64,000 bases of DNA from NCBI GenBank assembly GCA_004193285.1, contig SECP01000043.1, forward strand, positions 1-64,000, in the 5' to 3' direction. Positions 23,808 through 45,419 of the stretch are shown here, piece after piece. The translations under genes were made by a program, and so were the position numbers. The notes under the pieces were generated by a model that worked only from the letters and a program-made list of their open reading frames with translations, was not told where the DNA came from and made no database searches. Numbering within the stretch: position 1 is the stretch's first letter; every line of letters begins with the position of its first letter. This DNA is from Myxococcales bacterium. Its GTDB lineage: Bacteria > Myxococcota_A > Polyangia > Polyangiales > Polyangiaceae.

Positions 23808-25610
23808 CTAGAGCAGGCCCGTTGCTCGGACGTCCAGATAGGCTTGATAGACAAAGTCGCCCCACGCGCTGACCAAGCCGTCGTCCCACGGGCGCGAGGT
23901 GTACTCGGAGCCCAGGGCGCGGATGTTGTCGTCGGGCCAAGCCGCGGAATTGCCGGAGTAGGCCGCGAGGTCGAGCCCTGGATACTGGGCCGCCGTGTTC
24001 GGCAACGCGGCGAGCGACATGCGGGCCCCTTGGTCCGCGACCAGGCGCAGATAGCGCGCGACGGCGAAGATATTGTACTCGTCCGACGCGAGCAGGTCGG
24101 CAGTCGCATCGTGCCCTAGCGGCCGCGAGGGATCGTTCAAGCCGTCCGTGCGCCGCGTCGGTTCGCTGACCAAGTCTGCGAACAGATCATGACGGCGCGC
24201 GGTCGACACCACTACTTGCCCGAGGCCGATCGACGTGTCGCCGCGCATGATGCTCGTCGCGCCTTGATAGTCCTTTGCGTCTTCGGCCTGCGATTGGTCG
24301 CGTTGCTCGGCGAGGATGAAGGCGGCGATGAGGGCGCCATGCAGGTTGTGCGCGCTCGCGGCGGCGGTCATCACCTGCGCGCGCGACGGCAAGTTACCGC
24401 GGTAAGACGACGCCTCGACCGACGCGATTGGACGCCTCAATAGCAACTCCGCTTGCTGCCTGCGCTGCGTCGAGGTGAGGCCGCCGAGATAACCGGGCAA
24501 GCTGCCGACCGGGTTGCTGTACGTGGCGACCGTGCCGGCGTGACCGGCGGCCAGCAGCGCTTTGTCCTCGAGGGGGATCTGCGGCACGCCGGGCGTCGTG
24601 TGGAACGTGCCTACGTAACGCGTGACCGGGATGACCCCGGTCGCACCGACTCCGGTGAACGCGTCGCGCAGGAAGCCTCCGTTGAAGCCGGTGCGCGACG
24701 TCCGCCGCGTGCCGACCACCGCCGCCTCGAGCGGCGCGGGGTTGAACGCCGGAGCCGGCGCGGTGACGCCGTAGCGGCCCAAGTTGAACTGCAGCTCCGC
24801 GCCCGGCCCGAGCCTGCGCACATGCGGCTCGACCAGCGCCCTGCTCGCAGCATCCAGCCCGCGCCCTAAGATCTGCAGGAGCCGGCGCCGACTATCGAGA
24901 TCGTCGACGCGATCGAACAGCGCGAACAGCATGCCCGCCGCGTTGAGGTCGACGATGGTCCGTGGGAGCACCGGATCGGTATCGAGCGCGCTGAGGATGC
25001 GCGCCTCCTCGGCGTCCGTCACGGCCCAGTCGTCCAGCGCGTACGAAAGCTCGTACTCCACGATGCGGCTCGTCGCGGTGAGCGCGGCGGCAGGCGTGGC
25101 TGCGCGAACCATCCCCGCCGGCAGTCCGAGCGCATGCAGCGATGCGTTGCGCCCGGCCTCGCGCTCTGCGCTGCCTCGCGCGGGCGCGATCGCCTCGCCA
25201 TGCTCCGCCGAGCCCGCGCGACGATGCTGCAGGACGTGCGTGATCTCGTGCGCGAGCAGCGGGCTCTTCGCGCTCTCGAGCTCACGGCTGCCTATCCCCG
25301 CGCCGAGCACGATGTCGCTGCCGACCGTGTACGCCCGCGCGTCGAGCGCTCGAGCCGCGCGCTCTGCCGCGGGGCCGCGATGCAAGCGCACATCGTGCAA
25401 AGACTCCCCGAATGATCGCTCCATTTCGGTCCGCACGCTCGATCGCAGCCCCACCGGCGCCTCGCTCAGCCCATCGAGTACCGATATCCGTCCGATGTCG
25501 TGCTCGATCCTCGCGCCGCTCGCTGCGCGTGCCGGCGGTTCGCGCCTGGCGGCAGGCGGCCCGCTCCTAGCTTCCGCCCTCGTACTCTCGACGAATGCGC
25601 GAGTGCTCAT
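23808..25610 (-). CDS. DUF4157 eCIS cargo with lysozyme/transglycosylase-like C-terminus
   Basis: 600 aa from the ATG at 25610 (GGAGAAG upstream), overlapping the lipoprotein stop by 4 bp. The DUF4157 domain (about 35-135) has the zinc motif HEITH at 121-125 in LLAHEITHVLQ. DUF4157 marks proteins tied to eCIS loci and is thought to be a cargo-processing or loading domain. A middle region (about 170-400) is unassigned. The C-terminus (about 425-600) fits a soluble-lytic-transglycosylase/goose-lysozyme-like fold: ILAEQRD with candidate catalytic Glu 435, then TSIGLGQVVVSTAR, then NIFAVARYLR. Predicted role is a peptidoglycan-cleaving effector. Enzyme assignment is by motif only. The adjacent coupled lipoprotein fits as its immunity protein. 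Confidence 0.75.
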   Translation of the reverse strand: MSTRAFVESTRAEARSGPPAARREPPARAASGARIEHDIGRISVLDGLSEAPVGLRSSVRTEMERSFGESLHDVRLHRGPAAERAARALDARAYTVGSDIVLGAGIGSRELESAKSPLLAHEITHVLQHRRAGSAEHGEAIAPARGSAEREAGRNASLHALGLPAGMVRAATPAAALTATSRIVEYELSYALDDWAVTDAEEARILSALDTDPVLPRTIVDLNAAGMLFALFDRVDDLDSRRRLLQILGRGLDAASRALVEPHVRRLGPGAELQFNLGRYGVTAPAPAFNPAPLEAAVVGTRRTSRTGFNGGFLRDAFTGVGATGVIPVTRYVGTFHTTPGVPQIPLEDKALLAAGHAGTVATYSNPVGSLPGYLGGLTSTQRRQQAELLLRRPIASVEASSYRGNLPSRAQVMTAAASAHNLHGALIAAFILAEQRDQSQAEDAKDYQGATSIMRGDTSIGLGQVVVSTARRHDLFADLVSEPTRRTDGLNDPSRPLGHDATADLLASDEYNIFAVARYLRLVADQGARMSLAALPNTAAQYPGLDLAAYSGNSAAWPDDNIRALGSEYTSRPWDDGLVSAWGDFVYQAYLDVRATGLL

Positions 25611-26086
25611 GGTTTCTTCTCCAATTGGGCCGCAGCGAGCACCGCCCATGCCTCATCGAAGCTCGGCTCGCCGTGCTCGGCTTGCACGGTCGCGGTCATC
25701 GCGATCCAGCGCGACCCGGCCGGCTTGCTCGCCCGGAACCGATACTCCTGGCCGCCCGATCCGCCGCTATACCTCGACAGCGCGAACCGGGCGAGCGCGC
25801 CGCCCTCGAGCGACCGCTCCTGCGCCGCATCGATCGCTGGCTCGGCGTCGACGAGGTCGACCTCGACCCTCAATGGAGCACGGGTTGCTTGGCCCGCCGT
25901 AAGCGCGAACCCCGCCGCACGCTCGCGCGCGTCCATGCCCCCTGGAACGACCACCCTAAGGCCGTTCGGGTGCACGAGTTGCACGTGCCGCTCAGGTTCC
26001 GTACTCGAGCCGCCTCGACAGCCGATCGCGATCATGGCGCCCATCAGGAGTAGCCCTCCGGTACGCAGCGTGAAGGCATCGCTCAC
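25607..26086 (-). CDS. Small lipoprotein, candidate immunity protein for the muramidase-like cargo
   Basis: 159 aa starting at the GTG at 26086 in a 4-bp overlap with the preceding gene. The signal ends MGAMIAIGC, a good lipobox, so the mature protein is a periplasm-facing lipoprotein of about 135 residues. The body (LVHPNGLRVVVPGG, GFALTAGQATRAPLRVEVDLVD) is a compact beta-rich domain resembling Tsi3-type immunity proteins, which neutralise the T6SS muramidase Tse3; this similarity is from memory of the family pattern. Location (periplasm) and coupling to a lysozyme-like cargo gene match an immunity role. Otherwise it could be a baseplate-anchoring lipoprotein. Confidence 0.65.
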   Translation of the reverse strand: MSDAFTLRTGGLLLMGAMIAIGCRGGSSTEPERHVQLVHPNGLRVVVPGGMDARERAAGFALTAGQATRAPLRVEVDLVDAEPAIDAAQERSLEGGALARFALSRYSGGSGGQEYRFRASKPAGSRWIAMTATVQAEHGEPSFDEAWAVLAAAQLEKKP

Positions 26087-26619
26087 TCCGCACCGTCGAG
26101 CGCAGCTCGCAGGGCGTCGTGAGCTGCGCGTACTTCGGGCGATGGCTGCGCCATGAGCCTCGCCAGGTCGTCCTTCGCGGCCAAGATGTCCTGGACGTTC
26201 GGGTCGGCGAGCTGCTCGAGCTGGTCCGCCGTCGCCGTGACGAGCTCGAGGCGTTGCGCGTCCGTCAATGCGCGGACTTGTGCCTGCAGCAGCCCGCGCT
26301 CGCTTCGGTCGTATGCTTCTGCTCCTTGCTCAGCGCGCTCGACCATGCCGTAAACTTCGTCGCGCAAGTGTAGCCAGCGCCGCACCAAGCGCGGCACGGT
26401 TGGATCTCGGCCCCAGTCGGCGGGTGGCGCCAGCTCCGCCAGGGCGCCGGCGACCGCAACGTTTAGCTGAGCTTCAGCCTCCGCGGCCGTTGGCGCCTTG
26501 GCGGCGAGCCGCTGCACCGGCTCGTCGGTATCCGCGCGGAAGATCGTGGCCGCAGCGCGCCACTGCGGTCCGGCCCGCTTGGCCGTCGTGAGCTCGACTC
26601 TGAAGTACGTGTGGATCAC
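26083..26619 (-). CDS. Hypothetical protein between two DUF4157 cargo genes
   Basis: 178 aa. The N-terminus (IHTYFRVELTTAKRAGPQWRAAATIFRADTDEPV) is beta-rich, while the rest is Ala/Leu/Glu-rich and helical (about 50-178). No signal peptide or membrane segment. It starts 4 bp after the 936-aa DUF4157 gene and ends in a GTGA overlap with the lipoprotein gene, so it is co-translated with the cargo module. It could be a chaperone/adaptor or the immunity protein of the 936-aa toxin. I do not recognise the family. Confidence 0.7.
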   Translation of the reverse strand: MIHTYFRVELTTAKRAGPQWRAAATIFRADTDEPVQRLAAKAPTAAEAEAQLNVAVAGALAELAPPADWGRDPTVPRLVRRWLHLRDEVYGMVERAEQGAEAYDRSERGLLQAQVRALTDAQRLELVTATADQLEQLADPNVQDILAAKDDLARLMAQPSPEVRAAHDALRAALDGAE

Positions 26620-26623
26620 GGGG

Positions 26624-29434
26624 TCAGTAGTGCGGAGTGGGATGATGGTGAGGCAGCCTGACTTCGACGTCGGCGGCCGGATCGTAGGGGCAGTTTAGCA
26701 CGCGGGCCACCTCGATGAGCCGCTGTAAAGATGCCTGGCGCAGGGCGTAGGTCGCGCGGTGCGTGCGGTCGCCACCGCCGCGCCGCTGCATGTCCCAGCG
26801 ACGGAAGCGAAGGTCGCGAATCAGCACGCTGATCGCGTAGGCGATCGCATCACAATCCGTGCTCGTCTCGTTCGCCGCGTCGTTGACCTCCTCGTGCGTG
26901 GGGTGCGACTCGCCGAGGCTCGGCTCCCATGACGGCAAGCTGCTCCCGACGGCGCCCACGATGCGCGTCGCGGCGGTCACGGCGAGTGACCCGCCGATCT
27001 GCGGGGCGGAAGGACGTACGGGTGCGGCGGGCCTCGGGGCGACCGCCGGAGCAGGCGGCGCCACCGGCTCGGCCACCGGCACCGCGACGCGAGCCGCACC
27101 CCCTTCGGTGCCGTACACCATCGCGGGCGCACCGCCGCTCGACGCTGAGGCCTGCGGCGCGCCGCCCGTTCGCAGCGACGCGAGCGTTCCTTGGCGAACG
27201 ACCTGCCCGCTGGCGTTGGTCTCGACGTACGTCGGGTTGCGCGTGCCCCACCCGTTCACGCGCACGATGTTGCCGCCGGCATTGCCTTCAATGCCTTCGA
27301 TCGCGCCCAGCCCGCCCGAAGGTGGCGGCAGAGCACGGATCAGGCGCACGCCGCTGAGCGCGCTGCTGGCCAGCCCGATCGATCCGAGCACCATATTCAG
27401 CGCGCCGACGGCCATGAGCGCGCCGGCTGCGTCCTGCTGCTCGCGATCGATCACGTCGTCGGCGCCGCGCGCGAGCGAGTACAGCTCACCTTGTTGATGG
27501 GTCTGATAGCCACGGTAGACCTGGTGCGCGCTCACGGCGGTGGTGAGCGCGACCGCGCCGGCGACGCCGATCATCGACGTCGGCGGGAAGATCGCCAAGA
27601 GCAACACGCCGATGGAGGCGATACCGACCACGATCGACTCCACAATCGACCAACGCTCTGCGCTTGCGATCTCGTCCTCGACCGCGCGACGAACCTCGGC
27701 GTCCGTGAGCAGCAGGAGGTCTCGCACGATCGGCCTCAGCTCCAAGTAGTCGAAGCTCGGCGCGTCGATGCGGCGGCTGAACTCGCGGTAGCTCGCCTGC
27801 CGCGCGCTGATCCGCTGGGCGATGTCGGAGACGAGCGCGCTCGCCGAGCCGGAGTGCGCCAGCGTCTCGGGCGGGAGGACGCCGTAGCCGCTCGGACCTA
27901 GGGCCTGCAAGTACGGCTGGATCGCGTTGATCCGGCGCTGAGCCTCCGCGATGTTGTCGAACCCGAACGACGGCAACGTCATCGGCTGGAACTGCGCAAA
28001 CGACGGCCGCGGCGCCGCCGGCTCATCGGACGCGGAGCGCAGGATCTGTAGCGGCGTGCGCTCCGAGTACCCCGCCGCCGCGCGAGCGCGATCCATGTCG
28101 TCGGCCTGCACCGCCGCGTGGCAGCCCGTGCATGCTTGGTAGCGGCCTTCGATCTGCTGCTGCATCACCCAGCGCCGGTTCGGCCCGGCGGTGTCCAGCC
28201 ACCGATCGGCGAGCGCCGTCTCCATGCCGCCGCGCCGCTGCGCCAAGTCGACCAACGCGCGCGTCTCTTCGGTCTGGGTTTGCGAGCGCACCTGGTCCGG
28301 AGTGAGCTGCCGCGTCAGGAACTGGCGCCACTGCTCGAGCATCAGGCTGTTTTGCGCCATGCGCGCCTTGCCCGCGCTCTTCACCATGCGCTTGAAGTCT
28401 GCTAGCCGAGCCGCGACCGAGGTCGCGCTCGCCGGCGCGCTGACGGGGCTCGCGACCTGCGCCACCGGCAGCTGACCGACGACCGACACGCCGACCTGGC
28501 GCTGACCACGAAACAGGGTCGTCGGGTTGACCTGCCCGGCCTCGACCCGAAAGCCGAATCGAAGCTGCTCGCTGGCGCCGACCGAGTCGCCAAAATCGAA
28601 GTGCACCGTCGCGCCGCTCACGCGCACGCCAACCGTGTAGCTGCCGATGGGGATGTTGCACTCGGTCATCGCGTAGGCGTAGCTGCCGCTGGTTGCCTCG
28701 AAGATGATCCGCTGCTCCTCGCACGAGATCCGCACCGCGCTCACCACGCCCCCCGCCGCCGCGCGACCGTCCGGCTGGCGCTGGAGCACGCTCGCTCGCC
28801 CCTGCTGCACGACGTGCGTGAGCTCGTGTGCGAGGAGCCGCCGACCGCGCGTCGTTGCCGGATCGTATTGCCCGGTCCGAAAGCCGATGTCGTGGCCGAC
28901 AGTGTAGGCCAGCGCATTGACCGCGCGTGCCGAGGCATCGGCACGCGCATCCGTGTGGACACGCACCTTGCTGAAATCGTGGCCGAAGCCCGACTCCATG
29001 AACGCGCGCGTGTCGTTCGCCAGCGGCGCGCCGCGGCTCTGCAGCACCTCGCCGACGATGGCAGGAGCCGTGAAGCCACCCGCCGGCCCGCCCGCGTCGC
29101 GCTGCGCTTGGGCAACGACGCGGCCGTGTACATCGGCGCTGCGGCCGCTCAGGATCGCGTCTGCGGCGCGGTCGGCCTCGCGCTCGTGTGCGTCGTCCGC
29201 GGCGCCGACCGTGAGCGCGCTGCCATCGCCGTACCGCTGCAGCGTGCCGGGATGCTCGTCGTCCTCGCACGCCGCGCACTTACGCTGGAGGATAGGGATG
29301 CTCGCGAGCTCGCGAGGCAAAAGTGCGCTCGAGGTCTCGCGCGCTGGAGCCGTCACCATAGGGCGCGCGGACGGGTGCGCGCGCTGCGACGGAGCAGCGC
29401 CCGAGCCGACGTTCGCGGCGGCCCGAGCGCTCAT
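26624..29434 (-). CDS. DUF4157 eCIS cargo with polymorphic-toxin-like C-terminus
   Basis: 936 aa. The N-terminal leader carries ILQRKCAACEDD (about 48-60) and a second TLQRYGDG. The DUF4157 domain (about 75-220) has GHDFSKVRVHTD (151-162) and the zinc motif HELTH at 203-207. A CxxCH pair (ACTGCHAAV) lies in the middle, possibly heme- or metal-binding. A hydrophobic block follows (VVGIASIGVLLLAIF plus a second helix), then a Pro/Ala-rich linker. The last domain (861-915) reads C-x-AIAYAI...RDLRFRRW...H...Q.SLQRLI...LNC, similar to the small Ntox16-type toxin signature. Predicted role is a toxin delivered by the eCIS. It overlaps the 52-aa gene by 4 bp. Toxin identity is tentative. Confidence 0.75.
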   Translation of the reverse strand: MSARAAANVGSGAAPSQRAHPSARPMVTAPARETSSALLPRELASIPILQRKCAACEDDEHPGTLQRYGDGSALTVGAADDAHEREADRAADAILSGRSADVHGRVVAQAQRDAGGPAGGFTAPAIVGEVLQSRGAPLANDTRAFMESGFGHDFSKVRVHTDARADASARAVNALAYTVGHDIGFRTGQYDPATTRGRRLLAHELTHVVQQGRASVLQRQPDGRAAAGGVVSAVRISCEEQRIIFEATSGSYAYAMTECNIPIGSYTVGVRVSGATVHFDFGDSVGASEQLRFGFRVEAGQVNPTTLFRGQRQVGVSVVGQLPVAQVASPVSAPASATSVAARLADFKRMVKSAGKARMAQNSLMLEQWRQFLTRQLTPDQVRSQTQTEETRALVDLAQRRGGMETALADRWLDTAGPNRRWVMQQQIEGRYQACTGCHAAVQADDMDRARAAAGYSERTPLQILRSASDEPAAPRPSFAQFQPMTLPSFGFDNIAEAQRRINAIQPYLQALGPSGYGVLPPETLAHSGSASALVSDIAQRISARQASYREFSRRIDAPSFDYLELRPIVRDLLLLTDAEVRRAVEDEIASAERWSIVESIVVGIASIGVLLLAIFPPTSMIGVAGAVALTTAVSAHQVYRGYQTHQQGELYSLARGADDVIDREQQDAAGALMAVGALNMVLGSIGLASSALSGVRLIRALPPPSGGLGAIEGIEGNAGGNIVRVNGWGTRNPTYVETNASGQVVRQGTLASLRTGGAPQASASSGGAPAMVYGTEGGAARVAVPVAEPVAPPAPAVAPRPAAPVRPSAPQIGGSLAVTAATRIVGAVGSSLPSWEPSLGESHPTHEEVNDAANETSTDCDAIAYAISVLIRDLRFRRWDMQRRGGGDRTHRATYALRQASLQRLIEVARVLNCPYDPAADVEVRLPHHHPTPHY

Positions 29435-29589
29435 GGCTTACGCCCTTCCACCTCGTTGGCTTCGACGATGCCGTGGCGGAGCTCGATGACGACGCCCTCG
29501 CCATAGTCGAGCGACTCGATAGGCCACCAGCCGATGCCGTGGCGCTGTCGATTGGATTCTGCCGGCTCTTTACCGCTATGTGCCCGCAT
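29431..29589 (-). CDS. 52-aa hypothetical protein between Mur ligase and DUF4157 cargo
   Basis: 52 aa from the ATG at 29589, chosen over 29664 because GGAGGGG lies 8 nt upstream; this start overlaps the Mur-ligase 3' end by 14 bp. The stop overlaps the next start by 4 bp. Composition is mixed (GIGWWPIESLDYGEGVVIELRHGIVEANEVEG) and resembles a small beta-structured domain. Its size and coupled position suggest an accessory factor of the cargo module; no family recognised. Confidence 0.55.
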   Translation of the reverse strand: MRAHSGKEPAESNRQRHGIGWWPIESLDYGEGVVIELRHGIVEANEVEGRKP

Positions 29590-30892
29590 CCGTACTGCCC
29601 CTCCAATGCGGATCAGCTGGACGTTTCCCGATCTCGGAACGGGCCGATGGCTTCGCGTGCTCACGGAGGGCGGGCTCGAGCACGCCGCGTGCGACCTCGA
29701 CGTCCGACCATGGCAACTCGCGACCGCGAACCTCTTGCGTGGTCTCGTGCCCCTTGCCTGCGATCAACACGACGTCTTCGGGCCTCGCGGCGCGAATCGC
29801 GGCCTCGATCGCGGTGCGGCGGTCGAGCTCACGGACGAACGACCCGCTGGACGCCTCGCGCAGGCCGCGCTCGACGTCAGCGGCGATCTCGAGGGGATCT
29901 TCGCTGCGCGGGTTGTCGGTCGTGATGATCACACGATCGGCCAACGCACCCGCGACGCGGCCGAGCGGCGTGCGGCGCTCGCGATTGCGATCACCACCGC
30001 AGCCGAACACGCAGGTCAGCTGGCCGCGCGCACCGAGCTCACGCGCCGCCACCAGCACGGTGCGCAATGCGTCCGGCGTGTGCGCGAAGTCGACGATGAC
30101 GAGCGGCTGAGTCGCTACAATCTGAAAACGGCCAGGGACGCCTGCAAAGCTCGCGAGGCCGCGCTCGATCGCCGCCGCCGGAAAGCCGGCGGCGTGCGCG
30201 GCGACTGCGGCTGCGAGCGCGTTGCTGGCGTTGTGCGCGCCGGTCACCTTCAGCGCGAGCGCGCCACCCAGCGCTTCGCCGAGCGCGCTCGGCGCGAGGC
30301 TCACGTGCATGCCATCGACCGCCGCACTAACCTTGCGTGCTTGGAGCGCGAGCGGTAGGGCCGCGTTCGCGGTGGCGACCTCGCCGGTCGCGTACGCGAG
30401 CAGCGCCGTCCCCGCGGGCGCCGCGTTGGCCATCGCACGGGACTCGGGGTCGACCGCGTTGAGCACGGCGGCGCCGTGCGGTCGCAGATTCGTAAATAGC
30501 TTGGCCTTCGCGGCGAGATAACCTTCGCGCGAGCCGTGCAGCTTGTAGTGGTCCTCCATCAGGTTGGTGAACACGGCGACGTCGGGCGGACACGTGCGCG
30601 CAAAGCCCGTGGCGAGCGCCAGGGACACCACCTCGACCGCGATCGAGCGCGCGCCGGCCTCGGCTGCGGCCGCGAGGAACGGCAAGAGCCGCTCGCGGCG
30701 CGGTAGGTCGATGGCGCGGCCTCCGACCCAAGCGCCGACGGTCGACGAGAACGCAGCCGGCTCCCCGGCCGCCGCGATGATCGCCGCGATCATCGCCGTC
30801 GTCGTCGTCTTGCCGTTCGTGCCCGTGACGCATAGCGCACGGAACCGCCAGGCATCTTGCAGTGCGGACGCGGTGTCGCTCGGGCCCAGCAT
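29576..30892 (-). CDS. MurE-like Mur ligase lacking the N-terminal substrate domain
   Basis: 438 aa. The ATP-binding P-loop GTNGKTTTT begins at residue 24, whereas in full MurE it lies near residue 115, so the UDP-MurNAc-binding N-terminal domain is absent. The central domain has FTNLMEDHYKLHGS and the carbamylated-Lys region YLAAKAKLF. The C-terminal domain has VIVDFAHTPDALRTVL, TTDNPRSEDP (the DNPR motif that selects meso-diaminopimelate in MurE) and IAGKGHETTQ. Mur ligases couple ATP hydrolysis to adding amino acids to muramyl peptides. It sits inside the eCIS operon, 3 bp after the DUF6519 stop, so it is co-expressed with the particle. A catalytic core with a different acceptor is plausible; function unknown. 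Confidence 0.85.
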   Translation of the reverse strand: MLGPSDTASALQDAWRFRALCVTGTNGKTTTTAMIAAIIAAAGEPAAFSSTVGAWVGGRAIDLPRRERLLPFLAAAAEAGARSIAVEVVSLALATGFARTCPPDVAVFTNLMEDHYKLHGSREGYLAAKAKLFTNLRPHGAAVLNAVDPESRAMANAAPAGTALLAYATGEVATANAALPLALQARKVSAAVDGMHVSLAPSALGEALGGALALKVTGAHNASNALAAAVAAHAAGFPAAAIERGLASFAGVPGRFQIVATQPLVIVDFAHTPDALRTVLVAARELGARGQLTCVFGCGGDRNRERRTPLGRVAGALADRVIITTDNPRSEDPLEIAADVERGLREASSGSFVRELDRRTAIEAAIRAARPEDVVLIAGKGHETTQEVRGRELPWSDVEVARGVLEPALREHAKPSARSEIGKRPADPHWRGSTDAGT

Positions 30893-30895: not shown

Positions 30896-32419
30896 TCACT
30901 CCGTCTCGAAGAGCGGCTTGAGCCTCCGCCGCACGCCGATCACGTGGTCGATGCCCGTGCCGCCGCGCAGCACGATTGCAAGCGGCGCGTAGTGGTGGTG
31001 CGGGCCGTGAGGCTTGATCGCGAGAGGGGTCTTCACCGCGGGGTCTCCGCTGCCGGTTGATGGCCACAGCACGTCCCCGCTCGCGACACGCGCAGGGATC
31101 TGCCAGTAGTCGCCAGACCGCTGCTCGGGCGCCTCCTGCACGCCTTGCTCCTTGGGCGGCCCTGCAAACAAGACCTCCACGCCGTCTTCGAGCGGCAGCC
31201 ATCGATCGAGGTCCGCTTGCCGGACGGGGATCGCGCCACGCTCTAGCGGCCGCTTGGCGCTCGGCCGGTGATCCCAACGCCGCAAGTACGGGTGCAGCGT
31301 GCCCTCGGCGATCTCCGCGAGATCGTCGGCGAACACGGCGATCCGCACCGTGAGGTCGTCGCGGTCGATCGGCGCGAGCACGCGACCGAGCAGCCCCGGA
31401 CGCCCAGGATCGCGGCCGCCCTCGAAAAGCGGCACGTCGTCGAGCGTCTCTAGGGTCAGCGCATCGTTCACGAGCTCGACGATGTCACCTGCGACCAAGC
31501 CAAACCGCTCGTCGCGGCCGAGGCTGCCGAGCTCGACCGTGATCTCGATCTCGCGATCGCCCGCGGTCGCCGGCGACTCGGGCGCGGCGATCCGAACAAT
31601 CGGGAAGACCACCGAGCCGTTGTCGCGCGACCACTTGAAGGTGAACAGCACGGCATCACCGCGAGCATCGAAAGGCTCCCGCACCGCCGCGAGCTTGCCC
31701 TTGCCTTTACCCCTGTCCGCCTTGTTCCTGATCGGCTCGGTCTGCCCCTCCGGGAGCGCATCGTGGATCTGAACGCGATACAGCTGGTTCTCGCGCCCGC
31801 GATACTGCGACGCCGGAGACAGCTGGCACGGGTCGACATTGGGGCTGGCCGTAGCCGCTCGCGCGGCCAGGCGGCGGCGAGGTCGTTGCCGCAGGTGCTT
31901 TGCGATCAGGTTATCTGCCCACGGGTCCGGGCTCTCGATGTCCGGCGCAGTATTGACCATTCGCAGTAGCCGCACGCGGGACACGACCTCCGTTCGCGTC
32001 GCGGTATCCGGCCCACCGAGCGCGATCTCGCGGATCCGCGGATCTTCGAGCGAGTTGACGTGCCGCTCCCACACATCCAGGAACGCGACGTAGGCACCGT
32101 CGGGTTGCTGGGCGAGTGACAACGTCGCGGGTCCACCGCGCTGCACCACGCGGATGCCGTCGACGTAGTAGATACCACCGCCGATCGTGAGGGTCGCGTC
32201 CTGGTTCGTACCCTCCACCAAGAAGCCGAGCTCACCGTGCTCGTTCGCGGGGCCGGCGTGAGGCCCGATCAGGTCCCGGAGCGCGCGGCGTAGCGCGCGC
32301 TTCTGGATCGCGGCCTGCTCGTTCCAGTCGGCGTCGAGCTGGACGCGCCCTTGTTGCATGAGGACTCCGCTGTATGCGGCCTCCCAATCGTCGCTGTTGC
32401 GCGTGAAATCGCCTTGCAT
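30896..32419 (-). CDS. DUF6519-type eCIS/phage-tail-associated structural protein
   Basis: 507 aa. The start is diagnostic: QGDFTRN.DDWEAAYSGVLMQQGRVQLDADWNEQ, the N-terminus of DUF6519 proteins found next to phage-like tail genes. Further stretches are beta-rich (GGGIYYVDGIRVVQRGG, FTFKWSRDNGSVVFPIVRI). No catalytic motif is visible. The RBS GGAGTGAG precedes the start. It follows the tail-protein-I gene by 19 bp. It probably decorates the baseplate or acts in target contact, but its structural role is not established by sequence. Confidence 0.8.
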   Translation of the reverse strand: MQGDFTRNSDDWEAAYSGVLMQQGRVQLDADWNEQAAIQKRALRRALRDLIGPHAGPANEHGELGFLVEGTNQDATLTIGGGIYYVDGIRVVQRGGPATLSLAQQPDGAYVAFLDVWERHVNSLEDPRIREIALGGPDTATRTEVVSRVRLLRMVNTAPDIESPDPWADNLIAKHLRQRPRRRLAARAATASPNVDPCQLSPASQYRGRENQLYRVQIHDALPEGQTEPIRNKADRGKGKGKLAAVREPFDARGDAVLFTFKWSRDNGSVVFPIVRIAAPESPATAGDREIEITVELGSLGRDERFGLVAGDIVELVNDALTLETLDDVPLFEGGRDPGRPGLLGRVLAPIDRDDLTVRIAVFADDLAEIAEGTLHPYLRRWDHRPSAKRPLERGAIPVRQADLDRWLPLEDGVEVLFAGPPKEQGVQEAPEQRSGDYWQIPARVASGDVLWPSTGSGDPAVKTPLAIKPHGPHHHYAPLAIVLRGGTGIDHVIGVRRRLKPLFETE

Positions 32420-32438: not shown

Positions 32439-34628
32439 TCACGTCACGAAGAACAGGCCGGCGTCGACGCTCGCGGGGACATAGTCGTCGAGCCGCTGGG
32501 CGAGGGCATCCTCGCGTTGAGGCCAGTAGAGGTCGTGGAGCGCGCCCATCTCGCCCTCATCGTCGGCGCCGCGTCCGATCTCACGAGCGACATCGCGGCT
32601 CAGCTGAGCATACGCAGGGTTGCCGTACTGCCGACTGGTCCACACCGGCCACACGCGGTGCGCTTGCGCGCGACGACCAGTGTGATCGTCAAGACCCAAC
32701 GGCTCGAACGCGAGATCCGGTTGGCAGTGGTAGCGCGCCGGGGTGCGCGAGCCGAGCGGCACGTGACAGAACCGCACGCATCCGGGCGCGCGGCGCGCGA
32801 CGCGCACGATGCCTGAGAACAAGCTGTTGTCGGCGAGCGCGATGGCGTGGGTCGTGACCTTGCCGAACACCGTGCTCGTCCGGATCGTCAAAATGGCGCG
32901 CGCAAAGCCACCGGCAGGGCCGTCGCTGAACGCGTCATCGCGGTCGTGGCCCGCGTCGAGGATGCTGCCCACGATGGCGATCCGCATCGGCTCACCATCG
33001 GAGGTCACGGCGATGGGTCCGACAATCGAGCGCTCGATGCTCACGTCGCCGGCGATACCGTCGAGGACCAAGCTCGCACTCGGGCCGCTCGGGCGCTGCC
33101 GCGCGCTACGCTCGGGCGGCACCAGCGTGCAGTGGCGAAACACGACCTGCGCGAGCGGGCCGGCGACCGCGACGCTGCGGCCGCTGATCACGAAGCCGTC
33201 GCAGACGAAGCGACTGCCCTGCTCGCCGGCGAGCAGGAAGGTGTCGCGCGCATCGGCCCGATCGTCTACCAAACGCAGGACGGCGCGGTAGCGATCGGCG
33301 GCGCGCAAGATGAGCACCTGCTCCTGGCGCAGCGCGATGCGGACGGGGCCGCGCTGCACCTCGCGCGTGGCGACCTCGATGATCGCTCGATCGGGCGCCT
33401 CCTTGCGCCAGCGCGCCAGCGCGTCGGCCAAGGTGGGCAGCTCACCTTCACGATCACCGATGACGTAGGTGACATGATCTTCGTGCGGGGCGACGAGCTC
33501 CCGGTCGTATTCACCCCCCCCGATCGCCGCCGCGAAGCCGTAGTGGTACGAGACGCGCGCGCCGCTCATCGTGTCTTCGGCGAAGCGGTGCCCTTCTCTG
33601 CGGGCCCTGCGCACTTTGAACCGGCCAAGCTCCGGGTCGAGCAGGACCGTGCGGCCTTCCGGCACGGCGTACGACCACTCGGTAAGGTCCGCGACCAGCA
33701 CTTCGCTCGCCGGAACCGGCTCGGCCGGCGCGCCGTCCACGGCGCCGACGAGCCAGATGCACACGCTCTTGTCGGGCCCGTAGTAGCGCTCGAGCTCATC
33801 GCTCAGGAGCCGCCGCGTGAGCCGCCCGGGCACGTGGTGCGGAGCCGAGATGTTGAACGCGTTCGGCTCGGCCTCTGGCCGCACGAACAGCGGCGTGTCG
33901 ACGCCGAGCACGTTGAAGTGAAAGCAACCACGCTCGCTGCTGCGGCGGTTGCGCGGGTCGCGATCGACGATGCCTTCCTGCAAGTACGCCGTACCGTAGG
34001 TCACCGGCCAGGCGCGCGTGCGCCACGCGAACACGCCGACGCTGGGGATGCCGTAGCGCCCGCGGCCGTGCGACGACGTGGCGCGGCGCAGATCGGCCGT
34101 GTGCGCCGTCCGATCGAACGGACCATCGAGCAACGCCATCGCGCCGCCATCGCGAACCTGCGCGGTGCGCCCGCGCTCCAGACGCTGATGATTGAGCGGC
34201 TGCGTGTACGACAGCAGGCGGTACAGCTCGACCGCGTGCGCCGGCCAGCCTGCGCTCGCCCGCGCGAGCTCCTCGAGCAGTGCGAGCGTACCTTTTCGCC
34301 GCCGAAAGGCGAGCGTGCGCGCGACGTCGGCGCGCGGCGCCAGCATTCGGCGCAGCTCGAAGCCCTCCGCCCCCTGGACCTCCCCTGGCTCGCCCGCGCG
34401 CGCCGTCGCCGTCCAGCCGACCAGCTCGCCGATGTACGGGACGATCGACGGATCGCAGGTCTCGATGAACCAATTGTCGTAGAGCCGATCGAGGTCAGCC
34501 TCGAGCACGTTCACCTGCTCTTCGATCACGCGCAGGAACGTTTGGAGCGGCCCGCCCCGCTCCGCGTCGCGCAGGCGATGTATGTAGGGAAGCAGCGCGT
34601 ACAGGCGCTCGGCTCTCGGGATGCTCAC
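32439..34628 (-). CDS. Tail-protein-I-like baseplate protein fused to a beta-helix region
   Basis: 729 aa. The N-terminus (about 1-130) is the phage tail protein I (P2 gpI) type: RLYALLPYIHRLRDAE..GPLQTFLRVIEEQVNVLEADLDRLYDNWFIETCD. The central part (about 420-640) has short repeating hydrophobic strands (VLILRAADRYRAVLRLV, FVCDGFVISG, VSIERSIVGPI) that suggest a right-handed beta-helix as in tail spikes. The C-terminus (YGNPAYAQLSRDVAREIGRGADDEGEMG) is typical of this family. The N-terminus should sit in the baseplate wedge, with the beta-helix facing outward for binding. It overlaps the upstream baseplate gene by 4 bp. Confidence 0.83.
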   Translation of the reverse strand: MSIPRAERLYALLPYIHRLRDAERGGPLQTFLRVIEEQVNVLEADLDRLYDNWFIETCDPSIVPYIGELVGWTATARAGEPGEVQGAEGFELRRMLAPRADVARTLAFRRRKGTLALLEELARASAGWPAHAVELYRLLSYTQPLNHQRLERGRTAQVRDGGAMALLDGPFDRTAHTADLRRATSSHGRGRYGIPSVGVFAWRTRAWPVTYGTAYLQEGIVDRDPRNRRSSERGCFHFNVLGVDTPLFVRPEAEPNAFNISAPHHVPGRLTRRLLSDELERYYGPDKSVCIWLVGAVDGAPAEPVPASEVLVADLTEWSYAVPEGRTVLLDPELGRFKVRRARREGHRFAEDTMSGARVSYHYGFAAAIGGGEYDRELVAPHEDHVTYVIGDREGELPTLADALARWRKEAPDRAIIEVATREVQRGPVRIALRQEQVLILRAADRYRAVLRLVDDRADARDTFLLAGEQGSRFVCDGFVISGRSVAVAGPLAQVVFRHCTLVPPERSARQRPSGPSASLVLDGIAGDVSIERSIVGPIAVTSDGEPMRIAIVGSILDAGHDRDDAFSDGPAGGFARAILTIRTSTVFGKVTTHAIALADNSLFSGIVRVARRAPGCVRFCHVPLGSRTPARYHCQPDLAFEPLGLDDHTGRRAQAHRVWPVWTSRQYGNPAYAQLSRDVAREIGRGADDEGEMGALHDLYWPQREDALAQRLDDYVPASVDAGLFFVT

Positions 34629-37600
34629 GATGCCACCTCCGTCAACAAGAGCAAAGCGGGCGTGATGCGCGCGAAGTACAGCACCTCGCCCGCGTCAGCA
34701 GAGAACGCCCACGTGCGCCGTCCGGCGTCACGGGCGCCGAGCAGCTCACTTAGCCCGAGCTGTCGCTCGAGCAGGAGTTCGCGCGCCGCCGCCTCTTGTT
34801 CCGGCGCGGTGCTCGACCTCGGGGCAGCCGACAGCGAGGCGGGGCGTAGCGGCCCGAAGGCGTCCACGTCGATGCTCCGCACACCGGCGACCGACTGCAT
34901 CGGTTCGAGCACCGCCGAGAGGTAAGCCGGCTCGCCGATCGCGCGCGCGTCCCACCCTTGACGCGACAGGATGCGCTCGCGGAGCGCACCCTCGACTTGC
35001 GGCCAGTCGTAGCGCGGGTCGATGCGCACCGAGGCCTGAAGCAGCATCGGCACGGCCTTGGCCACCCTGACCACGGGGCGGAGCAACGGATCGCCGTACG
35101 CCTGGAGCGCGGCGCGCAGGTTCTTCAACAGGTCCGAGCCTTCCTCGATCAGCACGTCCTCACCACCTGCGATCACGATCTCGACCGTACCCTGGCGCTC
35201 GCGCGCGGTCGCCTTGGTGACGCCAGCGAAGTTGAGCGCGAAGTCGGCGTGGTCGGTCACCGACACCAGCCGGTCGATCGAACGCGCGGCGATCGGGATG
35301 CGCTTGCGGATGGCGTCGCGGTCGTCGGCGTCGGCGCCGCCGGACGAGCGCACCGGGTTGACGACCTCCTGCACGCCGATCGGCCGCGTGACGAGTGCGT
35401 TGATGAGGCCGACATCGACGTTGCCCGAGGCGCCGATGCCGACGCGATAGCGCGCGGTCAGGTTCTCGATACCGGTCGGGAAGCGCGCGCCGCGACGACC
35501 GTCGCCGCCGCGGATCTCGTCCTTGCGATCGCTCATCGTTCGGCTGCGCACGACCTCATCGCGCGCGCCGAGCAGCGAGTACGAAGGGACCTCGGGCCAC
35601 AGCACGCCGCTCACGCGCACCGCCAGCGAGCTGGCGATGCCGGACGGCGTGGCCGCGGACTCCCAGGTCCGCGGCCCTTGACGCAGCGTGAAGCGCTGCT
35701 CGGAAACCGAGGCGTCGCCGCTGCCCAGGACCTCGTCACGCGTTTCGCCGTGCGTCGCGTGAACGACGTTGCCGCGCACGATCACGCTCGAGCGCCGATA
35801 CACGTTGCGTAGCGGCGTCGCGAACGTGATACGCGTGTAGCCGCTGCTTCGCACCGCGGCCTCGGGCGCGTCGCCGCTGAGCGGCTCCTTAGCGTGGAGC
35901 AGCGCTGGGTCGCGGCTGAACAGAACGCTGCAACTGGCCACCTTCGCGACCTCGGCGACGCGAATGCCGGTCACGCCGGGCAGGTCGCGCTCGCCCTCGA
36001 CGATGACCAGACGACCAGCAGGCATGTCGCCGACCGCGCGGTCGAGATCGATGAAGTCGCCACCGACGGGCAGCTCGATCGGCTCACCCACGAGCGAGAG
36101 CGGCTCGGGTTGGGCATAGGCGAGCGAACGACGGATCGGCTTGATGTCCGCCGACTTCGGCCCTTCGCTCGCGCCCTGCGGCTGCCACCAGGCCTCATCC
36201 AGCTCGGCCAGCGTCGCCTTGCCCGGCGCGCCGTATGCCAGGCGCGACTGCACCTCGATCGCATCCACCATGAACACGTGCGTCGTGAGCTCTTCTGCGT
36301 CGGGCTGGTCGGCCGGCGGCGCGCGCAGCACGAGCGGCGTGCCCACGCGAATCGCGGCGAGCTCGCCGGCGAGGAAGAGCCGATTGCTCTTCTCGTCTGC
36401 GGCGGGCGCGTGCTCTCGCGGCTCCGATACCGAGGTGGTCTTCCTCTTCTCGAGGACGCTCGAGATCTCTTGGATCGGCGGCACCGCGTGCCCGAATACC
36501 TGCGCACGCACGCGCATGACGTACACGCGCGGCGCCGGCTCGGGCTGCACCGTGTGCGCCAGCGCGGCGAGGTATTCTCGTAGGTCGGGGTGTCCGGGCG
36601 CGATCAGCGCGATCGCCTCGGCGGTCGGCAGCAGTGTGCCACTCGCGGACGCATCGGCGGCGAAGCCGCCGCCGGCGAGCGTGTCCAGCGTCCGCCCCGC
36701 GCGCGCCAAGCTCGCCGTGGCAACGATAGGTTGTGGCACACCTGGAACCGGCGGCGCAGGCTCCGGTGTCGGCGGGTCGGGAACGTCGGGCGCGTCCGCA
36801 GCGACCTCGTCCCACTCGCCGCCGCGAATCCAGGCCCGATCCAGCGGCACGAGCCGCAACGTCGTGTGCGCGGTCTCGGGGTGCGGCCACGCCTCGCTTA
36901 CCCGATACACCTCTTCGGGCTTGGGCTTCTCGTTGACTTTGCGCGCTGGGTCGGCGACCAAGACCACGTCGCCGGCCTGCACGTTCTGGCCGGTGCCTGC
37001 GAGGAAGATCTCGATTCGCCCCGTCGCACGCACGCCGCCGAAGCCGTGTCTGGGGTCGTGCGGCCGCACGATGTACTCGCGGCGGATGTAGCGGCCCGTC
37101 GCGCGCCCGCTCGCCACCATCGCGTTCCACTCGGCCTGCGCATTGATCGCGTGGCTGGTCTCGAACATCTGCGCGGACTGCCCGGGCCGCGGCGACGACT
37201 GCGTGCGCGTACGCTCCGGGATCTCGCCGTCGAAGCCCGCTTGGACCGTGAAGGCAAGGTGCACGCTGGCGGCGACGCCCGGACGAGGCTCGTAGCCGGT
37301 GAGCCGACCGAGCTCGATCACCGACCGCTCCTCGGTGGCGGTGCGCAAGTAACCTTCGTTCGCGATGCGCTCTTGGTAGAAAGTCAGCACGTCGGAAAGG
37401 CACGCCCAGCCATCGAGCAACGCGGTGGCCGCTTCAGGGTCGCCGCCCAGCAAGAAGCTGCGGTGCGACTCGCCAAGGCAGCCCTCGGCGCCGCGCGAGC
37501 TGGCGGCGCTCCCGCCCAAGTCTTGCTCCGCTTGCAGCGCCGACAGCCGAGCGACCATCGTGTTGAAGAAATCGGTGTGCGTACCAACGCGGTACGACAG

Positions 37601-37681
37601 CGCGCCCTGCCCTGGCGGATTGTCGAGCGGATCGGGCGCAAGGCGGCCCACGCCCTCGCAACACGTGCAATCGCAGCTCAT
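34625..37681 (-). CDS. Large baseplate-J-like wedge protein (second of two; Afp11/12-like)
   Basis: 1018 aa from the ATG at 37681, which overlaps the preceding stop by 4 bp; the frame stays open to 38587, but the extra sequence is the antisense-like shadow of the neighbouring gene. The N-terminus MSCDCTCCEG is Cys-rich. It is followed by YRVGTHTDFFNTMVARLSA, ALLDGWACLSDVLTFYQERIANEGYLRTA and ELGRLTGYEPRPGVAASVHLAF, the pattern of putative baseplate assembly proteins. The C-terminal half includes VTDHADFALNFAGVTKA and a baseplate_J-like fold ending in a beta-rich tail. It should form the inner baseplate with the 856-aa paralogue. Confidence 0.85.
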   Translation of the reverse strand: MSCDCTCCEGVGRLAPDPLDNPPGQGALSYRVGTHTDFFNTMVARLSALQAEQDLGGSAASSRGAEGCLGESHRSFLLGGDPEAATALLDGWACLSDVLTFYQERIANEGYLRTATEERSVIELGRLTGYEPRPGVAASVHLAFTVQAGFDGEIPERTRTQSSPRPGQSAQMFETSHAINAQAEWNAMVASGRATGRYIRREYIVRPHDPRHGFGGVRATGRIEIFLAGTGQNVQAGDVVLVADPARKVNEKPKPEEVYRVSEAWPHPETAHTTLRLVPLDRAWIRGGEWDEVAADAPDVPDPPTPEPAPPVPGVPQPIVATASLARAGRTLDTLAGGGFAADASASGTLLPTAEAIALIAPGHPDLREYLAALAHTVQPEPAPRVYVMRVRAQVFGHAVPPIQEISSVLEKRKTTSVSEPREHAPAADEKSNRLFLAGELAAIRVGTPLVLRAPPADQPDAEELTTHVFMVDAIEVQSRLAYGAPGKATLAELDEAWWQPQGASEGPKSADIKPIRRSLAYAQPEPLSLVGEPIELPVGGDFIDLDRAVGDMPAGRLVIVEGERDLPGVTGIRVAEVAKVASCSVLFSRDPALLHAKEPLSGDAPEAAVRSSGYTRITFATPLRNVYRRSSVIVRGNVVHATHGETRDEVLGSGDASVSEQRFTLRQGPRTWESAATPSGIASSLAVRVSGVLWPEVPSYSLLGARDEVVRSRTMSDRKDEIRGGDGRRGARFPTGIENLTARYRVGIGASGNVDVGLINALVTRPIGVQEVVNPVRSSGGADADDRDAIRKRIPIAARSIDRLVSVTDHADFALNFAGVTKATARERQGTVEIVIAGGEDVLIEEGSDLLKNLRAALQAYGDPLLRPVVRVAKAVPMLLQASVRIDPRYDWPQVEGALRERILSRQGWDARAIGEPAYLSAVLEPMQSVAGVRSIDVDAFGPLRPASLSAAPRSSTAPEQEAAARELLLERQLGLSELLGARDAGRRTWAFSADAGEVLYFARITPALLLLTEVAS

Positions 37682-40610: not shown

Positions 40611-41180
40611 TCAACCCACGTTGATTGCGGCGCCGTCTATGGTGACGCTGCTCGAGCTGATCTCGGCGACGCCGCACACCGGCGCCGCCGCGCCGGGTAC
40701 CTGCTCCGTCGTGAGCTTGATGCTCTGGCCGTCCAGCTTCAGACGGGTGCGCGGGACGACTTGCTGCAGGTGCTCGACGCTCAAGGTGTCGCCATCGAAT
40801 GTCACGACCCACTTGCCGACCTTGAGCACCCCCTTGTTCGGATCGATGCCGGCCAGCGGTGCCAGCGCCGCCATCGTCATCGGCAGCGCCTGCGCCTCGG
40901 GCGGGAAGAAGCAGCCGGTCCAGATCGGTCGGTTCGGGTTGCCGTGCTCGAACTCCGCCCACACCCAAGCATCCTTGGGAGGGATGAAGAACAGGCCCGT
41001 CCCACCGCCTGGCGTCGTACCCGCCGAAGCGAGCGGAAACGCGGGCAGCGCCCAACCCGAGATCTGCGTGCCGAGCACGTCGGGGATGCGAAGCTTGAGT
41101 CGGCCAATCTTGTAGTCGTCCGCGTTGCTCTCCACCTGCGCCCGGTATTTGCCCCAGAACTCTCTACGTGCGTTGCTCAT
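40611..41180 (-). CDS. Baseplate spike protein (gpV/VgrG-like OB-fold)
   Basis: 189 aa from the ATG at 41180 (4-bp overlap with the hub gene). The OB-fold is visible in FWGKYRAQVESN...IGRLKLRIPDVLG..ISGWALPAFPLAS and FIPPKDAWVWAEFEHGNPNRPIWTGCFFPP, the hallmark of phage baseplate assembly protein V and the gp5 N-domain. The C-terminal half has beta-helix-like repeats (GKWVVTFDGDTLSV, RLKLDGQSIKLTT) forming the central spike, to be tipped by the PAAR-like protein. No effector extension is present. An upstream reading of this frame to 42398 is a shadow of the hub gene. Confidence 0.9.
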   Translation of the reverse strand: MSNARREFWGKYRAQVESNADDYKIGRLKLRIPDVLGTQISGWALPAFPLASAGTTPGGGTGLFFIPPKDAWVWAEFEHGNPNRPIWTGCFFPPEAQALPMTMAALAPLAGIDPNKGVLKVGKWVVTFDGDTLSVEHLQQVVPRTRLKLDGQSIKLTTEQVPGAAAPVCGVAEISSSSVTIDGAAINVG

Positions 41181-42295
41181 GGTGGAACCACCGGGGTAGG
41201 AGAAATGAATCCACTCCGCTTGAGCGTGAAGCCTTGCTTGTACTCTCCGGGCTGGATGCGGTGAGTGACCTGCTCCACGTTGTAGAGGCCATCCCACGTG
41301 AGGCCCATGCCGCGTATGCCGACCAAGCGGCGCGATCGCAGCACCGCTCCGTAGCGCACGCCGTCGACCTCGCCTGTCAGCTGGATCGGGTTGCTGCTTC
41401 GAGCGGTCGCGGCGAGGCCTTCGAGCAACGCCTGCGCGGGCGAGAGCCCCGTCGTGTTGCGGGCGACGGAGGTTCGCAGCGAAGGCGCGGCGCGCACCGT
41501 CGGCGGCAGGGCCGTGATCGGCGGGATGGAGACCGGGATCTGCACGCCCGTGTTCGGTTCCGTGATGTTCACGACCGGCGTCGCGGGGCCGAGCGCGTCG
41601 TACGAGCCGGACAGCGGACCCTCGCTGGCACGGTGGCTGTTTTCGCCGACGTTGATCGCCGGCTGCGGCAAGCCTTGTGGCGCGTCGGGCCCCCAGTACG
41701 CGCGCGACACGCCGGGCGCCACCGGCTCCACGAAGAACACGAAGCCGTTGTTCTCCGCCAGGTGGCGGATGCACGCGAGGTCGGTGCCTTGCCACGTCGG
41801 CGTGAGCTCGGTAGGCAGCGGTACGCCCGTGGTCGGCGTGACCACCGGCATGATCTGATACCGCGCCAGGTACGGCGCGAGCAGCTCGGTCACGATCGCG
41901 AAGTCCGGTCGGAGCTCGAAGGTCCGGCTGTGTTCTTCGAGGTCCATCATGAGCGTGAGGTCCTCGCCCGTGACGTGCAGCACGCTCTCGCCCGCCTCCG
42001 GTGAGCACGTGAACTGGAGGTTCGTGACGATGCCGTCGATCAGCACCTCCGGCATCGCGCCCATCACCAGCGTCACCACGACCCGCGCGGGCGGCTCGAA
42101 CATCCCGCTCGCGATGAGCGAGCTGTCCAGCAACGCATCGCGCCCCACCGCGAAGGTGAGCTGAAAGCCGTCGCGGCCGTTGTTGCTCATGCGTACTTCG
42201 ACCGCGCGCAGCGCCTCCATGACGGCAAACGGCGCCGGAAGGGGCAGCGTTGGGCCGACCTGGAGGAACAGCTGTATGCCGAGGAGATCGATCAT
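41177..42295 (-). CDS. Baseplate hub protein (gpD/gp27-like)
   Basis: 372 aa. The N-terminal segment (LGIQLFLQVGPTLPLPAPFAVMEALRAVEVRMSNNGRDGFQLTFAVG) and the central WQGTDLACIRHLAENNGFVFFVEP motif are typical of phage late-control gene D/Afp8 hub proteins. The C-terminus (LTWDGLYNVEQVTHRIQPGEYKQGFTLKR) is the conserved hub closing block. It forms the trimeric hub between tube and spike. It precedes the spike gene with a 4-bp overlap, as expected for an Afp8 split into hub and spike polypeptides. Confidence 0.9.
   Translation of the reverse strand: MIDLLGIQLFLQVGPTLPLPAPFAVMEALRAVEVRMSNNGRDGFQLTFAVGRDALLDSSLIASGMFEPPARVVVTLVMGAMPEVLIDGIVTNLQFTCSPEAGESVLHVTGEDLTLMMDLEEHSRTFELRPDFAIVTELLAPYLARYQIMPVVTPTTGVPLPTELTPTWQGTDLACIRHLAENNGFVFFVEPVAPGVSRAYWGPDAPQGLPQPAINVGENSHRASEGPLSGSYDALGPATPVVNITEPNTGVQIPVSIPPITALPPTVRAAPSLRTSVARNTTGLSPAQALLEGLAATARSSNPIQLTGEVDGVRYGAVLRSRRLVGIRGMGLTWDGLYNVEQVTHRIQPGEYKQGFTLKRSGFISPTPVVPP

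Positions 42296-45415: not shown

Positions 45416-45419
<4 letters not shown>

What the first reader, a model, noticed from the sequence alone, without database searches (positions are those of the whole stretch)
23808..26086. Muramidase-like eCIS cargo translationally coupled to a lipoprotein that looks like its immunity protein
The DUF4157 protein ends in a lysozyme/transglycosylase-like domain (Glu 435 in ILAEQRD, SIGLGQ, NIFAVARYLR). The gene immediately upstream, overlapping by 4 bp, encodes a periplasmic-facing lipoprotein with a Tsi3-like pattern. A producer needs immunity only if the effector harms bacteria. Characterised eCIS mostly act on eukaryotic cells, so an antibacterial particle in a predator would be notable.
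Basis: partly seen in the sequence, partly recalled or inferred. Interest (0 to 1): 0.85.

Follow-up and report, generated by a model that had tools for sequence, protein, structure and literature searches.

The report
Cell-wall-cutting toxin with its antidote
In a bacterial gene cluster for a phage-tail-like syringe sits a gene for an enzyme that looks made to cut bacterial cell walls, next to the gene for the membrane-anchored protein that should block it, which suggests that this syringe is aimed at other bacteria.

Summary
The 600-aa protein is an eCIS_core (DUF4157) domain joined to an apparently complete Tse3, the T6SS muramidase (PDB Tse3 E=6e-82 over residues 175-593). The catalytic Glu (E435 = Tse3 E250) and every side-chain calcium ligand checked are kept. 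The upstream lipoprotein is a Tsi3 homologue (E=3e-28 to PDB Tsi3). It keeps Arg60, Ser99 and Glu126, which contact the Tse3 active site or its calcium, but not Asp96 or Asp127. The two genes overlap by 4 bp at the 3' end of an eCIS gene run. In five related eCIS clusters the stretches fetched lack these cargo genes, and none of seven congeners has a Tse3 catalytic domain: an imported module in a variable cargo slot.

Delivery is inferred. The genome also has a near-complete T6SS, and the one other DUF4157-Tse3 fusion found (Roseomonas) lies in a genome with two TssK genes and no detected Pvc16 or Tsi3. No tail fibre was recognised, so target and release as a free particle are open. "Predator" was not tested.

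eCIS toxin-immunity pairs and DUF4157-toxin fusions are in print; my searches found no Tse3/Tsi3 in an eCIS. New variant of a known kind.

The parts
23808..25610 (-). effector: eCIS_core (res 55-132, with HExxH as HEITH) + apparently complete Tse3-type muramidase (res 175-593); catalytic Glu435
25607..26086 (-). Tsi3-type immunity lipoprotein (lipobox AIGC, then Arg at +2)
   Evidence: 4-bp overlap with the effector
26083..26619 (-). 178-aa protein, no family, helical in a low-confidence model; overlaps the Tsi3 gene by 4 bp; possible chaperone or adaptor (guess)
26624..29434 (-). 936-aa second eCIS_core protein, probable further cargo; C-terminus unknown
29431..29589 (-). 52-aa ORF bridging the Mur-ligase gene and the 936-aa gene (ATGA overlap); not tested for being coding
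29576..30892 (-). MurE-like Mur ligase without the N-terminal UDP-MurNAc-binding domain, 3 bp after DUF6519
30896..32419 (-). DUF6519 eCIS protein, last conserved backbone gene before the cargo slot
32439..34628 (-). 729-aa backbone protein (weak phage-tail TIGR02242, below its cut-off)
34625..37681 (-). baseplate J-like protein (the ORF runs to 38587; start taken from homology)
37678..40248 (-). baseplate wedge-like protein (start approximate)
40611..41180 (-). spike/OB-fold protein (Phage_base_V; start approximate)
41177..42295 (-). 372-aa protein, hub-like by position only (no PHROGs match)
42302..42592 (-). small baseplate wedge-like protein (weak PHROGs match, E 0.0078)
42605..43249 (-). 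conserved eCIS backbone protein, 214 aa
43476..45419 (-). AAA+ ATPase (Pvc15-like)
45416..46660 (-). Pvc16_N (cap) protein
46657..47607 (-). 316-aa protein of no known family, between Pvc16 and baseplate genes
47604..48338 (-). T4-baseplate-like protein (below the Pfam cut-off; conserved in relatives)
48342..48905 (-). tube protein (gp19)
48883..50511 (-). sheath protein
51802..54477 (+). 891-aa third eCIS_core protein, divergent, followed by a 266-aa ORF (54486-55286)

Best explanation
A Tse3-Tsi3 module, otherwise found here almost only in T6SS-bearing genomes, was placed in the 3' cargo slot of an eCIS gene run, and the toxin carries an eCIS_core domain in front, as eCIS cargoes do. Proposed working: the toxin has no evident signal peptide, so it is made and held in the cytoplasm away from the wall and loaded into the contractile particle (eCIS_core acting in loading or release). 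On contraction the spike carries it into the periplasm of a target bacterium, where the calcium-bound muramidase cuts peptidoglycan glycan strands. Tsi3, a lipoprotein in the periplasm, protects the surviving sister cells (and the producer against leakage) by inserting loops into the active-site groove, Arg69 and Ser110 (Tsi3 Arg60, Ser99) reaching the catalytic Glu435. Shown by sequence: domains, catalytic and calcium residues, key inhibitor residues, gene order and overlaps. Inferred: co-transcription, loading into the eCIS, delivery to the periplasm, killing, neutralisation.
For: Domains and full-length Tse3/Tsi3 similarity. Catalytic Glu identical in 12 of 12 Tse3 rows; Asp438, Gln439, Glu443, Ser460 and Gln465 12 of 12; Asn366 11 of 11 rows with a letter; Asp447 10 of 12 (Glu in 2); Ca3 ligand Ser572 12 of 12, Glu569 and Asp576 11 of 12 (site roles from PMC3792639). 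Tsi3 Arg60 and Ser99 11 of 11, Glu126 10 of 11. A Tsi3 homologue lies beside the Tse3 homologue in 10 of 11 database loci. The model's only PDB matches at E<=0.001 are five Tse3 entries. Gene spacing: DUF6519 -3 bp- MurE-like -overlap- 52-aa ORF -4-bp overlap- 936-aa eCIS_core -4 bp- p178 -4-bp overlap- Tsi3 -4-bp overlap- effector. eCIS structural genes present. Backbone conserved in five related clusters, cargo genes without a match in the stretches fetched. The three eCIS_core matches found in the genome all lie in this locus.
Against: The genome encodes a near-complete T6SS, and TssK is found in 12 of 13 genomes examined with a Tse3-like domain, own genome included, so T6SS delivery is possible. 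The other DUF4157-Tse3 fusion is in a genome with two TssK, no Pvc16_N match and no Tsi3 match. No tail fibre was recognised in the cluster, so a bacterial target is inferred from cargo and immunity alone. Tsi3 Asp96 and Asp127, contacts in the crystal, are Ser and His here, and vary in the family. Tse3 Ile246 is Phe. The model was built from 11 rows, mean pLDDT 62.6, rmsd to Tse3 8.5-9.1 A.
Confidence: 0.7

Rival explanations
1. T6SS cargo: the protein is a Tse3 effector of the genome's own T6SS, whose gene happens to lie in the eCIS gene run; the DUF4157 domain is a second, VgrG2b-like metallopeptidase toxin or an adaptor.
For: T6SS genes TssK, TssM, TssL, TssJ, Hcp, TssB, TssC, TssF, TssG, ClpV-like and VgrG present. 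Roseomonas fusion in a genome with two TssK and no Pvc16_N match. DUF4157 proteins occur in T6SS clusters (PMC6899460 passages).
Against: The gene overlaps its neighbour at the end of an eCIS gene run; the three eCIS_core matches of the genome are all in the eCIS locus and none on the T6SS contig; the genome's one Tse3_cat match is this gene, not one by the T6SS.
Confidence: 0.14
2. Lysis device: the muramidase lyses the producer to release the particles, and Tsi3 holds it in check until then.
For: eCISs are described as released by cell lysis, and Geller et al. suggest that some toxins may contribute to lysis (PMC8213781 passages). The neighbouring 936-aa protein has a hydrophobic stretch near residues 590-640 (read by eye).
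Against: No strongly hydrophobic stretch in the effector's first 60 residues (crude scan); the eCIS_core domain points to cargo; an extracytoplasmic immunity lipoprotein beside the gene is the usual arrangement of interbacterial effectors (general knowledge); Tse3 relatives found here lie mostly in T6SS genomes.
Confidence: 0.08
3. The contractile system is cell-attached rather than released, and delivers the same toxin on contact (overlaps with the best explanation, differing in the mode of release).
For: No recognised tail fibre; a haloarchaeal CIS with DUF4157 toxin-immunity pairs is membrane-bound (PMC11566945 passages); immunity makes sense between touching sisters.
Against: The backbone carries eCIS marks such as Pvc16_N and an AAA+ ATPase; no anchoring gene was identified, but none was looked for systematically.
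Confidence: 0.2

Closest known systems
Tse3-Tsi3 of Pseudomonas aeruginosa (T6SS)
   Same: toxin domains, catalytic Glu, calcium ligands, Tsi3 domain, Arg60/Ser99/Glu126 contacts, N-terminal lipoprotein-like signal
   Different: extra N-terminal eCIS_core domain; gene in an eCIS gene run; immunity gene upstream instead of downstream (L012); Asp96 to Ser, Asp127 to His, Ile246 to Phe
DUF4157-toxin fusions and toxin-immunity pairs of eCIS (Geller et al. 2021, PMC8213781)
   Same: DUF4157 at the N-terminus, toxin at the C-terminus, gene at the 3' end of an eCIS operon, adjacent immunity gene
   Different: the pair tested there was a RES-like (NADase-type) toxin with an Xre-like antitoxin (EAT5); here a wall-acting muramidase with a periplasmic lipoprotein immunity. 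Their Fig. 5a lists other pairs and was not seen
Halogeometricum borinquense CIS toxin-immunity pairs (PMC11566945)
   Same: DUF4157 toxins with adjacent immunity genes in a CIS
   Different: archaeal, membrane-bound system; toxins not described as Tse3-like in the passages seen
DUF4157-Tse3 fusion of Roseomonas acroporae (L009)
   Same: same two-part architecture, catalytic Glu kept
   Different: no Pvc16_N, no other eCIS_core and no Tsi3 match in that genome; neighbours unrelated; two Ca3 ligands changed

Membership tests
Tse3 muramidase | Tse3_N and Tse3_cat domains | tested here: met
   both above cut-off
Tse3 muramidase | catalytic Glu250 and Ca1/Ca2 ligands | tested here: met
   E435, D438, Q439, E443, D447, S460, Q465, N366
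Tse3 muramidase | hydrolysis of peptidoglycan glycan strands | not testable with these tools
   needs assay
Tse3 muramidase | delivery by a T6SS | tested here: inconclusive
   T6SS present in the genome, but the gene is in the eCIS gene run
Tsi3 immunity protein | Tsi3 domain | tested here: met
   1.4e-20; 2.8e-28
Tsi3 immunity protein | lipoprotein signal | tested here: met
   AIGC lipobox after a hydrophobic stretch; by pattern, no dedicated predictor; 3 of the 10 relatives aligned (L005, L008, L015) show no such Cys near the N-terminus
Tsi3 immunity protein | Arg60, Ser99, Glu126 contacts to the active site/calcium | tested here: met
Tsi3 immunity protein | Asp96 and Asp127 contacts | tested here: not met
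   Ser and His here; both columns vary across the 11 rows, so not defining of the family
Tsi3 immunity protein | binds and neutralises the toxin | not testable with these tools
   no co-folding on hand
eCIS cargo | eCIS_core domain with HExxH | tested here: met
   HEITH in the translation
eCIS cargo | encoded at the 3' end of an eCIS operon | tested here: met
   co-transcription itself not tested
eCIS cargo | present in the particle | not testable with these tools
   needs purification
eCIS | sheath, tube, spike, baseplate, AAA+, cap genes | tested here: met
eCIS | tail fibre | tested here: inconclusive
   none recognised; relatives carry long proteins, possibly fibres, at or next to DUF6519

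The most novel reading that the evidence does not exclude
The locus encodes a contractile particle that acts as a kin-sparing bacteriocin: it carries a periplasm-acting muramidase taken from the T6SS world and refitted with an eCIS loading domain, while a membrane-anchored antidote protects sisters when some cells lyse to release it. The MurE-like ligase and p178 of the same gene run may belong to the wall-directed module.
Probability: 0.4. Interest if true: 0.75.

Novelty: new variant of a known kind. Interest (0 to 1): 0.62.

Why it matters
Whether eCISs attack bacteria, and how producers avoid self-harm, is an open point: Geller et al. call the lack of immunity genes beside most antibacterial eCIS toxins a mystery (PMC8213781 passages), and a 2023 review states that none had been identified against them (PMC10598620 passage), although Geller et al. 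do report a pair. Here toxin and antidote have solved homologues with known active site and inhibition, so the question can be tested with residue-level controls. It also suggests that T6SS effector-immunity modules can be moved into eCIS cargo slots.

Tried and rejected
Viral contigs: 23 stretches matched a pattern, none encoded a relative. Plasmids: no match. Phages: one record, Pseudomonas phage Y5, 48% identity over 67% of the query, unannotated, possibly host DNA in the record (not followed). PADLOC: none of 7 proteins matched at E<=0.01. p178: no family in Pfam, NCBIfam or PHROGs, two weak matches in 376 other genomes, low-confidence model; not pursued. Promoter/terminator scan of 23500-31000: 0 promoter-like and 1 terminator-like site, against shuffle means of 0.3 and 2.5: uninformative. 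Alignment A2 with isolated eCIS_core fragments misaligned them and was dropped for A3. The tree and site table held a wrong-frame L009 row; they were discarded and redone. One origin of the two fusions is neither shown nor rejected (support 38/23).

Full report
What is there. The gene at 23808-25610 (minus strand) encodes 600 residues. Pfam finds eCIS_core (DUF4157) at residues 55-132, the Tse3 N-terminal domain at 178-270 and the Tse3 catalytic domain at 318-525. Against PDB sequences, residues 175-593 align with nearly all of P. aeruginosa Tse3, E 5.6e-82. So the protein is an eCIS_core domain placed in front of an apparently complete Tse3, not only a lysozyme-like tail. The gene before it, 25607-26086, is a Tsi3 homologue by Pfam (1.4e-20) and by PDB sequence (2.8e-28), with an N-terminal hydrophobic stretch ending in AIGC. 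The two genes share ATGA at 25610-25607.

Active site. The roles of Tse3 and Tsi3 residues are from Wang et al. 2013 (PMC3792639, results section, parts 1 and 2 of 3). By the gap-free stretch of the alignment, counted by hand, Glu250 is Glu435 here. In a 12-row alignment (window plus 11 database loci, one of them a fragment) the catalytic Glu is identical in 12 of 12; Asp438, Gln439, Glu443, Ser460 and Gln465 in 12 of 12; Asn366 in 11 of 11 rows with a letter; Asp447 is Asp in 10 and Glu in 2; the Ca3 ligand Ser572 is kept in 12 of 12, Glu569 and Asp576 in 11 of 12, the exception being Roseomonas. Against the reading: Tse3 Ile246, which that paper calls invariant, is Phe here, as in 5 other rows.

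Immunity. In an 11-row Tsi3 alignment (window plus 10), Arg60 and Ser99, which bind the catalytic Glu in the crystal, are kept in 11 of 11; Glu126, a calcium ligand, in 10 of 11 (Asp in one). Asp96 and Asp127 are Ser and His here, and both columns vary. A Tsi3 homologue lies beside the Tse3 homologue in 10 of 11 database loci (9 by tblastn; L006 by the PF22211 position, its frame and the alignment). The exception is L009. In L010 and L013 it is on the opposite strand.

Structure. An AlphaFold2 model from 11 rows has mean pLDDT 62.6. Its only PDB matches at E<=0.001 are five Tse3 entries, with rmsd of 8.5-9.1 A over the whole length. This supports the fold assignment but is a poor model in detail.

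Setting. The cluster holds sheath, tube, T4-baseplate-like, Pvc16_N, AAA+, spike and baseplate J genes, all on the minus strand with the effector last. From DUF6519 to the effector the genes are 4 bp apart at most or overlap, counting a 52-aa ORF, not tested for being coding, that fills the only larger gap. Further up, a 226-bp gap lies between the AAA+ gene and the 214-aa gene, and with the approximate starts about 360 bp lie between the wedge-like and spike genes; co-transcription was not tested. I examined 5 of the 15 other genomes with DUF6519 found. Backbone genes have the window's order in G263, and in G351 except for no AAA+ match. In G104 Pvc16 lies after DUF6519 and AAA+ and spike gave no match. 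In G362 the baseplate part and the sheath part lie on opposite strands. Of G322 only the end of the backbone was held. None of the five cargo-side genes (MurE-like, 936-aa eCIS_core, p178, Tsi3, effector) has a tblastn match (E<=1e-4) in these stretches, which reach about 8 to 34 kb past DUF6519 and end with the contig in G104 and G322. So the 3' end looks like a variable cargo slot.

Spread. The Tse3 catalytic domain is in 3 of 377 sampled genomes of the phylum and 3 of 317 of the class, own genome included in both; the 7 other genomes of the genus have none. The other two class hits are of one genus; their frames of 416-426 aa are too short for the added domain (one genome has a further 154-aa partial match, not examined). 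The genome-contig scan gave 11 loci; 1 of 11, Roseomonas acroporae L009, is also an eCIS_core fusion. L007 and L011 lie at their contig's start, so an upstream domain cannot be excluded there.

Against eCIS delivery. TssK is present in 12 of 13 genomes examined, own genome included; the one without is G293, 72% complete. In the own genome 10 of 10 proteins tested on that contig match T6SS-type families, besides TssK; TssA and TssE were not checked. Roseomonas has two TssK, no Pvc16_N and no Tsi3 match. DUF4157 proteins are known from T6SS clusters too (PMC6899460 passages). So the domain alone does not prove the route; gene position is the main argument, with the three eCIS_core matches of the genome all in this locus.

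Target. No tail fibre was recognised. In relatives the DUF6519 frame is longer (open frames of 1080 aa in G263 and G322, 1304 in G362, 937 in G104) or is followed by a long separate protein (1179 aa in G351), possibly fibres; here it is 507 aa and followed by the MurE-like ligase. The bacterial target is therefore inferred from cargo and immunity. A delivered muramidase would have no evident substrate in a eukaryotic cytosol (inference).

Known work. Geller et al. 2021 (PMC8213781; passages and section 13) describe DUF4157-toxin fusions and eCIS toxin-immunity pairs. Their Fig. 5a shows known antibacterial pairs, but figures are not held, so a Tse3-like pair there cannot be excluded. Danov et al. 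2024 (PMC11297309 passages) mention 68 predicted toxins with a peptidoglycan-binding domain; the words Tse3, Tsi3 and muramidase do not occur in its main text. The 2026 fibre catalogue (PMC12923769 passages) was searched for immunity and antibacterial and gave nothing on this. Searches: Tse3+eCIS 0 papers, Tse3+DUF4157 1 paper, on VgrG2b, eCIS+muramidase 0, 'extracellular contractile injection'+interbacterial+effector-immunity from 2019 on 0; broader listings of 64, 19 and 2 papers were seen (first 25 of the 64). The library holds open-licence papers only.

Verdict. Toxin-antidote pair: near certain by sequence (about 0.97). eCIS cargo: likely (about 0.75). Free antibacterial particle: plausible, untested. 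A new variant of a known kind.

Noticed in passing
29576-30892: MurE-like Mur ligase lacking the N-terminal UDP-MurNAc-binding domain, inside the eCIS gene run; its two best other matches in the genome are on C28 (45%) and C34 (40%, further Mur-ligase matches near).
   Followed up: partly
26624-29434: 936-aa eCIS_core protein with a hydrophobic stretch around 590-640 and no PDB match; maybe a second toxin, with p178 as its partner.
   Followed up: partly
51802-55286: Divergent 891-aa eCIS_core protein followed by a 266-aa protein of no known family, possibly another cargo pair.
   Followed up: no
L004:707-2439: In G293 (72% complete, no TssK match, Pvc16_N and six eCIS_core matches) a distant Tse3-like protein overlaps a small frame with a lipobox-like LACAG and a GHGGTEE loop recalling Tsi3's GGSGG; the Tsi3 model gave no match there.
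   Followed up: partly
L009:8732-11227: Roseomonas acroporae eCIS_core-Tse3 fusion with no Tsi3, Pvc16_N or other eCIS_core match in the genome and two Ca3 ligands changed.
   Followed up: partly
Pseudomonas phage Y5, OQ572407.1:24468-25262: A Tse3-like stretch in an unannotated phage record, perhaps host DNA.
   Followed up: no
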